A stretch of DNA of 64,000 nt from Cyclobacteriaceae bacterium (GTDB lineage Bacteria; Bacteroidota; Bacteroidia; Cytophagales; Cyclobacteriaceae), in contig JAHCHY010000001.1 in the NCBI GenBank assembly GCA_026129485.1, positions 186,001-250,000 of the forward strand, written 5' to 3'. The translations under genes were made by a program, and so were the position numbers. Below, piece after piece: positions 29,271 to 30,501 of this stretch (positions within the stretch are counted from its first letter, which is position 1; each line of letters starts with the position of its first letter). The notes below the pieces were generated by a model that saw only the letters and a program-made list of their open reading frames with translations, did not search any database and had not been told where the DNA came from.

Positions 29271-29352
29271 GCCCAGGTGGTGAAATTGGTAGACACGCTA
29301 CTTTGAGGGGGTAGTGCCGCAAGGTGTGCTGGTTCGAGTCCAGTCCTGGGCA
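29271..29352 (+). tRNA. tRNA-Leu (anticodon GAG)
   Basis: An 82-nt class II tRNA: acceptor GCCCAGG / CCTGGGC, D-arm as in other Leu tRNAs, anticodon stem-loop CTACT-TTGAGGG-GGTAG, short variable arm, T-arm CTGGTTCGAGTCCAG. Discriminator A; no encoded CCA. The start codon of a GIY-YIG gene follows after one base. Confidence 0.93.
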
Positions 29353-29353
29353 C

Positions 29354-29596
29354 ATGTTTTTTGTGTACGCAATCAGTAGTACCGTGAGGAACTACATTTA
29401 TGTTGGACTAACCGATAACCCTGAAAGGAGGATAGGGCAACATAATGCCGGATATGAAAAAACAACGCGGGCATATGCTCCGTTTTCGGTTCTGCTGATT
29501 GAATCTTTTCCGACCCGAATTGAAGCTCGTGTCCGGGAAAAATACCTGAAATCAGGTGTGGGCAAAGAATATTTAAAAGGGCTTCAAAAGTCCTGA
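29354..29596 (+). CDS. Tiny GIY-YIG nuclease inserted behind tRNA-Leu
   Basis: 80 residues, one GIY-YIG domain (UPF0213/UvrC-N type). Motifs are FVYAISS and YIYVGLT for the two GIY-YIG strands, ERRIGQHNAG with the catalytic Arg/His, and REKYLKSGVGKEYLK with the metal-binding Glu and Lys; all look intact. The ATG lies 2 nt after the last base of tRNA-Leu(GAG), so there is no room for a leader; translating upstream would read tRNA sequence. Just after the stop, the last 26 nt of the same tRNA are repeated (29599-29644). The gene thus sits between two copies of a tRNA 3' end, like cargo of a tRNA-targeting element. It may cut tRNA-gene DNA to promote its own spread. Family assignment is firm; mobility is inferred. 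Confidence 0.85.
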   Translation: MFFVYAISSTVRNYIYVGLTDNPERRIGQHNAGYEKTTRAYAPFSVLLIESFPTRIEARVREKYLKSGVGKEYLKGLQKS

Positions 29597-29598
29597 AA

Positions 29599-29644
29599 CT
29601 GGTTCGAGCCTGCCTGTCGGCAGACAGGTCCAGTCCTGGGCACA
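29599..29644 (+). pseudogene. Duplicated 3' end of tRNA-Leu(GAG), broken by a palindrome
   Basis: CTGGTTCGAG (29599-29608) and TCCAGTCCTGGGCACA (29629-29644) together equal 29329-29354 of the intact gene without a mismatch. Between them, exactly inside the T-loop, a 20-nt near-palindrome is inserted. No 5' half of a tRNA is present, so it is not functional. Confidence 0.88.
29609..29628. repeat. 20-nt palindromic repeat, copy 1
   Basis: CCTGCCTGTCGGCAGACAGG, a near-perfect palindrome inserted in the tRNA remnant. Its reverse complement matches 30435-30454 at 19 of 20 positions, so this is a dispersed REP-like family. Confidence 0.7.
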
Positions 29645-29694: not shown

Positions 29695-29776
29695 GCCGAA
29701 GTGGTGAAATTGGTAGACACGCACGTTTCAGGGGCGTGTGGCGCAAGCTGTGCGGGTTCGAGTCCCGCCTTCGGCA
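29695..29776 (+). tRNA. tRNA-Leu (anticodon CAG)
   Basis: An 82-nt class II tRNA: acceptor GCCGAAG / CTTCGGC, anticodon stem-loop GCACG-TTTCAGG-GGCGT with CAG, T-arm GCGGGTTCGAGTCCCGC, discriminator A. A terminator follows at 29788. Confidence 0.93.
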
Positions 29777-29787
29777 CATTAATTTAG

Positions 29788-30355: not shown

Positions 30356-30493
30356 GGACTTACGCAAAAAACTAAGTTGTCAGTTTGAGCCTGTCGAAAA
30401 CTATTCCATTCAGAGCCAAAAAGACTTTGACAAGCCTGTCTGCCGCCAGGCAGGCTCTGTCTGACATTCGAGGTTGTGTTTTTGCGTAAGTCC
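30356..30493. repeat. MITE-like element, 138 bp with 15-bp terminal inverted repeats
   Basis: The ends are perfect inverted repeats GGACTTACGCAAAAA (30356-30370) and its complement (30479-30493). There is no coding sequence. The interior contains GTTTGAGCCTGTCGAAAA and a second copy of the 20-nt palindrome. No clear target-site duplication was found. It sits between the cytochrome c gene and dinB. Confidence 0.65.
30435..30454. repeat. 20-nt palindromic repeat, copy 2
   Basis: CCTGTCTGCCGCCAGGCAGG, inverted relative to the copy at 29609-29628, one mismatch. It lies inside the MITE-like element. Confidence 0.7.
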
Positions 30494-30501
30494 AGTTAGC
30501 A

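What the first reader, a model, noticed from the sequence alone, without database searches (positions are those of the whole stretch)
29271..29644. tRNA-Leu(GAG) carrying an inserted GIY-YIG gene bounded by a duplicated tRNA 3' end
Seen: an intact tRNA-Leu(GAG) gene (29271-29352); a GIY-YIG gene starting 2 nt after it (29354-29596); then a second copy of the last 26 nt of the tRNA (T-loop to acceptor end plus CACA), starting 270 bp after the first. The order tRNA / nuclease / tRNA 3' end is what remains when an element recombines into a tRNA 3' end and restores it, with the nuclease as sole cargo. At about 270 bp this would be a minimal, integrase-free element. Known: GIY-YIG domains occur in homing endonucleases, and tRNA 3' ends are common integration sites. 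Inferred: the nuclease itself drives spread into tRNA genes.
Basis: partly seen in the sequence, partly recalled or inferred. Interest (0 to 1): 0.85.

Follow-up and report, generated by a model that had tools for sequence, protein, structure and literature searches.

The report
Nuclease-hairpin element living at tRNA genes
A tiny mobile DNA unit, made of one small DNA-cutting-enzyme gene and a short hairpin, sits beside tRNA genes in many bacteria and comes with a partial copy of the tRNA, so that the host's own tRNA gene stays whole.

Summary
Intact tRNA-Leu(GAG) (29271-29353) is followed at once by an 80-aa GIY-YIG gene (29354-29596) and a second tRNA 3' end. Of 160 distinct family loci, 136 lie within about 500 bp of a same-strand tRNA or tmRNA (14 isotypes plus tmRNA). 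The gene follows the tRNA (copy of its 3' part) or precedes it (copy of its 5' part). 61 of 71 palindrome insertions fall in tRNA hairpin loops. The window's locus is empty in the same genus; at a second locus 44 of 47 congeners are empty and 3 occupied. Partial copies match the resident tRNA. The enzyme is under purifying selection, clusters by tRNA isotype on its tree, and occurs in CPR bacteria. Other clades of these nucleases are often flanked by their own dispersed palindromes, as RAYT genes are by REPs. Best reading: an integrase-free GIY-YIG/palindrome mobile element specialised on tRNA genes, working like a cross between a homing endonuclease and a RAYT/REP pair. Cleavage and causation are untested; no paper found in ten searches describes it.

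The parts
29271..29353 (+). intact tRNA-Leu(GAG), the occupied (and restored) target gene
   Evidence: ARAGORN; Rfam; same gene without insert in L184, L185, L187, L188
29354..29596 (+). GIY-YIG nuclease gene, 80 aa (P0001)
   Evidence: PF01541 3.8e-17; AlphaFold2 mean pLDDT 96.2; dN/dS 0.11 against L007
29599..29608 (+). left piece of the partial tRNA copy (tRNA positions 59-68)
29609..29628 (.). 20-bp palindrome CCTGCCTGTCGGCAGACAGG inserted in the T loop of the tRNA copy, without loss or duplication of tRNA bases
29629..29643 (+). right piece of the partial tRNA copy (tRNA positions 69-83)
29695..29777 (+). tRNA-Leu(CAG), the next gene; in relatives it follows tRNA-Leu(GAG) after 8 to 73 nt
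30435..30454 (.). second copy of the palindrome family (one mismatch to the search pattern), inside one arm of a separate inverted-repeat element; not part of the tRNA unit

Best explanation
It is a minimal mobile element of two parts: a small GIY-YIG nuclease gene and a cognate short palindrome. It lives at tRNA genes. SHOWN by sequence comparison: the unit is present or absent at the same tRNA locus in close relatives; it lies on the tRNA's strand, either after the tRNA (with a copy of the tRNA 3' part) or before it (with a copy of the tRNA 5' part); the copy resembles the resident tRNA and is split by a palindrome, mostly at a hairpin loop; clades of the nuclease go with tRNA isotypes and with palindrome types; units form tandem arrays; the protein is under purifying selection and has crossed phyla. 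INFERRED: the gene is transcribed with its tRNA; the protein, a structure-specific GIY-YIG nuclease, nicks or cuts tRNA genes (at hairpin loops or at the palindrome); repair of the break inserts the palindrome, and more rarely the whole unit, and duplicates part of the target so that one tRNA stays whole; recombination between the tRNA copies then makes arrays or removes the unit. In function it would be a cross between a free-standing homing endonuclease and a RAYT/REP pair, with a GIY-YIG enzyme in place of the HUH transposase.
For: Nearness to tRNA: 136 of 160 distinct loci within about 500 bp of a same-strand tRNA/tmRNA (1 of 163 with an opposite-strand one); in the set fetched by protein similarity alone 47 of 51, and the other four show tRNA fragments or a palindrome-split fragment by eye. 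Empty sites: window locus; 44 empty, 3 occupied of 47; near-sister pair L234/L235. Palindrome in loops: 61 of 71 locus/positions against about 37% expected. Resident tRNA is the strictly best match of the copy in 61 of 76 cases, tie 11, worse 4. Isotype clustering on the nuclease tree: 36 changes against 72.5 in shuffles, 0 of 200 as low. dN/dS 0.06-0.27 in the 11 of 13 pairs that gave a value. SR1 copy reads through only with TGA=Gly, incl. an invariant Gly. Ten identical tandem units. Other clades flanked by their own palindromes and, for one, copy number tied to nuclease presence.
Against: No cleavage or movement was observed. The intact tRNA in an occupied locus still carries the supposed target, so how the host escapes self-cutting is unexplained. 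Insertion positions vary within one nuclease clade (Leu: D loop, T loop and others), which does not suit a single cut site. Palindromes elsewhere in genomes are not clearly in loops (16 of 43 against 28% of random positions). The strict script found a split copy in only 59 of 138 loci. 8 of 23 genomes with the strongest nuclease hits lack the palindrome, and 56 of 272 others have it. tmRNA-side members show no tmRNA copy. 24 of 160 loci have no tRNA called nearby, a few of them inside protein genes or larger proteins.
Confidence: 0.7

Rival explanations
1. Pure homing endonuclease (SegB-like): the nuclease cuts the tRNA gene of a cell without the element, and repair from the donor, using the tRNA as homology, copies the gene in. 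The palindrome merely blocks the cut site in the spare copy.
For: Presence/absence at one locus; the same isotype is used across phyla; SegB, a GIY-YIG free-standing homing endonuclease beside phage tRNA genes, makes breaks and tandem amplification of the segB-tRNA segment (PMC13096335, passages and section 10); tandem arrays here.
Against: The intact tRNA beside the gene is not blocked. The copies match the resident tRNA, whereas donor copying should often bring donor tRNA sequence. The palindromes are conserved, dispersed in the genome and sit at several loops, more than a random block would need.
Confidence: 0.35
2. Domesticated host gene: tRNA duplicates arose first, a useful GIY-YIG repair nuclease settled between them, and palindromes accumulate in the dead copy because it is free of constraint.
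For: Purifying selection; palindromes are mobile in the genome generally.
Against: Sporadic presence within a genus, 61 of 71 insertions in loops, different tRNAs and phyla, and a palindrome in a copy of some 45 bp when the genome has about 15 in 4 Mb.
Confidence: 0.08
3. Passenger: the unit is moved by an integrase or transposase of another element that uses tRNA genes as attachment sites.
For: tRNA 3' ends are common integrase targets (established knowledge).
Against: Only the GIY-YIG gene lies in the about 0.3-kb insert; half of the types duplicate the tRNA 5' part; insertion is at D, anticodon or T loops.
Confidence: 0.07
4. The loop bias is a survivor effect: palindromes entered working tRNA genes anywhere and only loop insertions were tolerated until a second copy existed.
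For: Loops tolerate insertions better than stems (established knowledge); no loop bias outside tRNA copies.
Against: Copies are truncated as well as split; several insertions at different loops occur in one copy (for example L011, L040, L048, L112, L117).
Confidence: 0.3

Closest known systems
SegB, free-standing GIY-YIG homing endonuclease of T-even phages
   Same: GIY-YIG enzyme gene beside tRNA genes; breaks within tRNA-containing sequence and tandem amplification with tRNA are reported (PMC13096335, passages and section 10)
   Different: Phage-borne; no fixed partial tRNA copy with an inserted palindrome is described in what I read, and no isotype preference was found there. P0001 has no tblastn match in 50,697 phage records at E<=1e-5; no direct alignment with SegB was made
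RAYT/REP (TnpA-REP) systems
   Same: A gene linked with a dispersed short palindrome; [quoted passage not shown]
   Different: GIY-YIG nuclease, not an HUH tyrosine transposase; the tRNA clade has the palindrome inside a tRNA copy, on one side
tRNA-integrating elements (genomic islands, prophages)
   Same: Insertion at a tRNA gene with a duplicated tRNA part that leaves an intact gene
   Different: No integrase, about 0.3 kb, 5' as well as 3' tRNA parts duplicated, copy split by a palindrome
UPF0213/YhbQ-like and Slx1 GIY-YIG proteins
   Same: Nearest solved folds and sequences: UPF0213 1ywl 3.8e-7 and 1zg2 5.2e-7, SLX1 0.0029; Foldseek 1zg2 6e-4, Slx1 1.1e-3
   Different: Those are not known to me as mobile elements (recalled)
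Yeast mitochondrial GC clusters, Rickettsia palindromic elements, mitochondrial double-hairpin elements (recalled, not looked up)
   Same: Short mobile palindromes
   Different: No linked nuclease gene known to me (recalled)

Membership tests
GIY-YIG nuclease superfamily | GIY-YIG domain with catalytic Tyr, Arg, Glu | tested here: met
   PF01541 3.8e-17 over residues 1-69; V4-Y5, Y16-V17-G18 region, R26, H30 and E62 invariant or nearly so in 14 sequences (catalytic roles recalled)
RAYT/REP | HUH (Y1) transposase, Transposase_17 domain | tested here: not met
   Pfam reports only GIY-YIG
RAYT/REP | gene flanked on both sides by its palindrome in inverted orientation | tested here: inconclusive
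   Window clade: palindrome on one side, inside a tRNA copy. Other clades: both sides in 6 of 8 (Q1), 6 of 15 (Q2), 4 of 14 (Q3); orientation not scored
RAYT/REP | palindrome dispersed in the genome | tested here: met
   15 places in the window's genome; 71 of 295 class genomes hold the perfect form with <=2 mismatches
Free-standing homing endonuclease gene | present/absent alleles at a conserved site | tested here: met
Free-standing homing endonuclease gene | enzyme cuts the empty allele | not testable with these tools
   needs a cleavage assay
Free-standing homing endonuclease gene | insertion destroys the target in the carrier | tested here: inconclusive
   the partial copy is split but the intact tRNA remains
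Intron-borne homing endonuclease | gene within a self-splicing intron | tested here: not met
   no intron family in the window at Rfam gathering scores; the tRNA is uninterrupted
tRNA-targeting integrative element | integrase gene | tested here: not met
   the insert holds only the GIY-YIG gene
tRNA-targeting integrative element | duplicated tRNA part beside an intact tRNA | tested here: met

The most novel reading that the evidence does not exclude
Small GIY-YIG nucleases are the transposase-equivalents of a whole class of dispersed bacterial palindromes. Each clade of nuclease spreads its own palindrome (CCTGCCTGCCGGCAGGCAGG, GTCATTGCGAGGNACGAAGCAATC, CCTGAACTTGNTTCAGG, TTCCTGCGNAGGCAGGAA), as RAYTs are thought to do with REPs. 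One branch became a tRNA-gene parasite that inserts palindromes into hairpin loops of tRNA genes and survives because its insertion duplicates part of the resident tRNA; it has spread through Bacteroidota and into CPR phyla, even adapting to the SR1 genetic code.
Probability: 0.5. Interest if true: 0.92.

Novelty: categorically new. Interest (0 to 1): 0.86.

Why it matters
If right, this is a mobile element of about 0.3 kb with no integrase or transposase of a known kind, targeting essential tRNA genes and leaving them whole. It would give a candidate driver for dispersed palindromic repeats in Bacteroidota and CPR genomes, for which I know of no driver (recalled), and would make a clean test system for how a lone nuclease can move DNA. 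It also warns annotators: partial tRNAs with hairpins, and short GIY-YIG ORFs read into tRNA ends, are traces of it.

Tried and rejected
Loop preference of palindromes outside tRNA copies: 16 of 43 sites in predicted loops against 28% of random positions (some sites counted in two loci); not supported. Phage and plasmid carriage: no tblastn match to P0001 in either collection at E<=1e-5; one viral contig (L213) carries a member at its start with a palindrome-split tRNA-Leu copy. Non-tRNA loci: 24 of 160. Rfam at E<=0.5 on 20 of them gave mainly tRNA; by eye many show tRNA fragments, L128 and L135 lie in a gene read by eye as the four-helix-bundle/23S-IVP type, L116 in an integrase-like gene, and L156 and L173 are in longer reading frames. 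Rfam on the 12 tRNA-less loci of the genus search: nothing at gathering scores. NCBIfam: no family. PHROGs and PADLOC were not searched: one search failed on a wrong frame and was not repeated. Host-gene and integrase-passenger readings were considered and disfavoured (see rivals).

Caveats on counts. The 163 loci hold three places fetched twice (L165, L166, L180), so 160 are distinct; L005, L006 (large GIY-YIG proteins), L073 and L081 (second copies) and L058-L072 (palindrome places) were dropped before counting. The tree has few columns, 10 of 132 inner branches starred, and two identical pairs of rows. P values ignore relatedness. The cut for 'strong nuclease' (best E up to 3.5e-24) and for Q2 nucleases (best E below 1e-40) was set after seeing the lists. 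The Q1-Q3 motifs were read from loci of which some recur in the test. Detection of partial copies relies on likeness to the resident tRNA, which biases. Four of 54 genus genomes with the flank were not fetched for (G366, G376, G382, G399); G376 is occupied (L284). Three of the 50 fetched had no Leu tRNA called.

Papers: ten searches found no account of this element or of these palindrome sequences as repeats; one search found five papers with one chance short match each. No preprints and few subscription journals are held. Of PMC13096335 I saw the abstract, passages and section 10; of PMC2817692 the abstract sentence and passages; of the others the listing only.

Full report
Observation. The window holds tRNA-Leu(GAG) at 29271-29353, an 80-residue GIY-YIG gene at 29354-29596 and a second tRNA 3' end. 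The second copy is 25 nt identical to the tRNA end, but split by a 20-bp palindrome at 29609-29628, placed in the T loop between tRNA positions 68 and 69 with no base lost or duplicated. The palindrome is a genome-wide family: 15 places in the window's genome with up to 3 mismatches, 0 for the reversed pattern. Several of those copies lie inside other repeats.

Generality. A scan of genome contigs with the protein alone gave 51 loci. 47 of 51 have a same-strand tRNA within about 500 bp; the other four, at contig ends, masked, or lacking a called tRNA, show tRNA fragments or a palindrome-split fragment by eye. Adding whole-genome hits, 136 of 160 distinct loci are near a same-strand tRNA or tmRNA: 50 Leu, 22 Met, 17 Arg, 13 Ser and smaller numbers of ten more isotypes and tmRNA. 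Only 1 of 163 had a tRNA on the other strand within 500 bp. In the window's genome four small GIY-YIG genes lie by tRNAs (Pro, Gly, Leu, and one between Ser and Arg), while two large GIY-YIG proteins have no tRNA within 1.5 kb.

Anatomy. Two mirror forms exist. Form A: intact tRNA, gene, then a copy of the tRNA 3' part. Form B: a copy of the tRNA 5' part, gene, then the intact tRNA. The copy is split by a palindrome. A strict script found a split copy in 59 of 138 loci, 89 insertions. Of 71 distinct locus/positions, 61 fall in hairpin loops (28 T, 27 D, 6 anticodon), against about 37% expected; 5 of the other ten are in the 8-9 linker, 4 in stems, 1 in the variable region. Some copies carry two palindromes in different loops. 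The palindrome differs between clades: CCTGCCTGCCGGCAGGCAGG types, CCCGCCYG types, TCCGCC types, TCCCGAAGGGA types. Units form tandem arrays; one genome has ten ORFs at 457-bp spacing with no difference between the nine complete units.

Mobility. At the window's locus a genome of the same genus has tRNA-Leu(GAG), 67 nt and tRNA-Leu(CAG); three more genomes of the family have 8-73 nt there. L007 and L010 are occupied like the window, and in L186 the end of a nuclease-like frame lies directly upstream of the same tRNA, as in form B (by eye). In another genus, 54 of 58 genomes share the flank of tRNA-Leu(CAA); 50 were read, 47 with a called tRNA: 44 empty and without palindrome, 3 with form B; a fourth occupied one, G376, was seen separately. 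A near-sister pair, flank 91% identical, differs by about 317 bp: partial tRNA with palindrome plus gene, directly before the restored tRNA. At the same syntenic tRNA-Leu(CAA), some Flavobacteriaceae loci carry form A and others form B.

Where the copy comes from. The partial copy fits its own genome's tRNA best in 61 of 76 cases, ties in 11 and is worse in 4; mean identity is 98.4% against 77.8% for the same tRNA elsewhere (with detection bias). The copy thus looks like a duplication of the resident target, or is kept alike by conversion.

The enzyme. AlphaFold2 gives pLDDT 96; the nearest solved structures are UPF0213 proteins and Slx1. dN/dS is 0.06-0.27 in the 11 of 13 pairs that gave a value; two were saturated. 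Several copies are broken (9 of 55, one of which, L042, is the SR1 copy that reads through under code 25). In SR1 the frame holds four TGA codons that read as Gly in that lineage's code, one at an invariant Gly, so the gene has lived there. Relatives of 57-66% identity occur in contigs titled Nomurabacteria, Doudnabacteria, Saccharibacteria, SR1 and Omnitrophota, with tRNA-Leu beside them or, in the Saccharibacteria locus, a split tRNA-Leu-like fragment and a partly masked tRNA. On the nuclease tree tRNA isotype needs 36 changes against 72.5 in shuffles (0 of 200 as low); palindrome class needs 11 among 51 labelled rows, without a shuffle control; forms A and B switch often (23 changes).

Link with dispersed palindromes. 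Across 295 class genomes, 15 of 23 with the strongest nuclease hits hold the CCTGCC palindrome, against 56 of 272 others (p=1.4e-5, no correction for phylogeny). In one genus, 12 of 19 fetched GIY-YIG loci, all lower scoring, have no tRNA. Instead several are flanked by other dispersed palindromes: CCTGAACTTGNTTCAGG on both sides in 6 of 8 loci of one clade, GTCATTGCGAGGNACGAAGCAATC on both sides in 6 and on one side in 3 of 15 of another, TTCCTGCGNAGGCAGGAA on both sides in 4 and on one side in 1 of 14 of a third; windows further off hold them in 0, 3 and 5 of 118. There was one cross-match, the first repeat at one locus of the third clade. For the second clade, 15 genomes with the nuclease hold a mean of 19.6 repeats and 43 without hold 1.6 (p=3e-6; among genomes at least 90% complete, 19.6 against 2.0, p=5e-5). 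This is the pattern known for RAYT genes and REPs (PMC2817692).

Reading. The unit behaves as a mobile element with a nuclease as its only gene. I think most likely that the nuclease acts on hairpins, its own palindrome and tRNA arms, and that repair of the break inserts the palindrome or the unit and duplicates part of the tRNA. SegB shows that a GIY-YIG enzyme beside tRNA genes can drive breaks and tandem amplification (PMC13096335). The main gap is that no cutting was seen and that the intact tRNA in carriers should remain a target. Outside tRNA copies palindromes are not clearly in loops, so the loop bias may owe something to selection.

Novelty. It fails a defining feature of RAYT (no HUH enzyme), of tRNA integrative elements (no integrase) and of intron homing genes (no intron). 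It may prove to be a free-standing homing endonuclease in the wide sense, but the tRNA copy, the inserted palindrome and the palindrome link are not part of that kind as I know it (recalled). Ten paper searches found no account. I therefore rate it as categorically new, with the reserve that unpublished, preprint or subscription work could not be searched.

Noticed in passing
window 30358-30500: An inverted-repeat element (cttacgcaaaaa ... tttttgcgtaag) whose one arm carries a palindrome copy at 30435-30454 while the other arm lacks it: an internal empty site.
   Followed up: partly
L002 about 1859-1930 (same place in L165): A partial tRNA-Leu(TAA) with a hairpin insert and no nuclease gene, directly before an intact tRNA-Leu(TAA): a gene-less form or remnant, in the window's own genome.
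   Followed up: no
L128, L135: GIY-YIG genes inside a protein gene that looks like the four-helix-bundle (23S intervening protein) type, with ccctgtgaaata/tatttcacaggg inverted repeats; in L128 the repeats enclose the gene (by eye).
   Followed up: no
L127, L131, L144, L118, L133, L138, L148: A sister clade downstream of tmRNA, tRNA-Asn, tRNA-Gln or tRNA-Ala with no RNA-gene copy; several flanks hold hairpins with gaagcag/ctgcttc or similar sequence (by eye).
   Followed up: no
L151 (same genus as the window): GIY-YIG frames on both sides of one tRNA-Ser(GGA), each with a partial tRNA-Ser copy on its outer side.
   Followed up: partly
L103 (G108:C9): Ten nuclease genes beside tRNA-Met at 457-bp spacing, the nine complete intervals identical.
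   Followed up: partly
L042 1501-1740: SR1 copy of the gene with four TGA codons that read as Gly in code 25.
   Followed up: yes
L035 about 888-924: Remnant of a form-B unit upstream of a tRNA that now carries form A: turnover at one locus.
   Followed up: no
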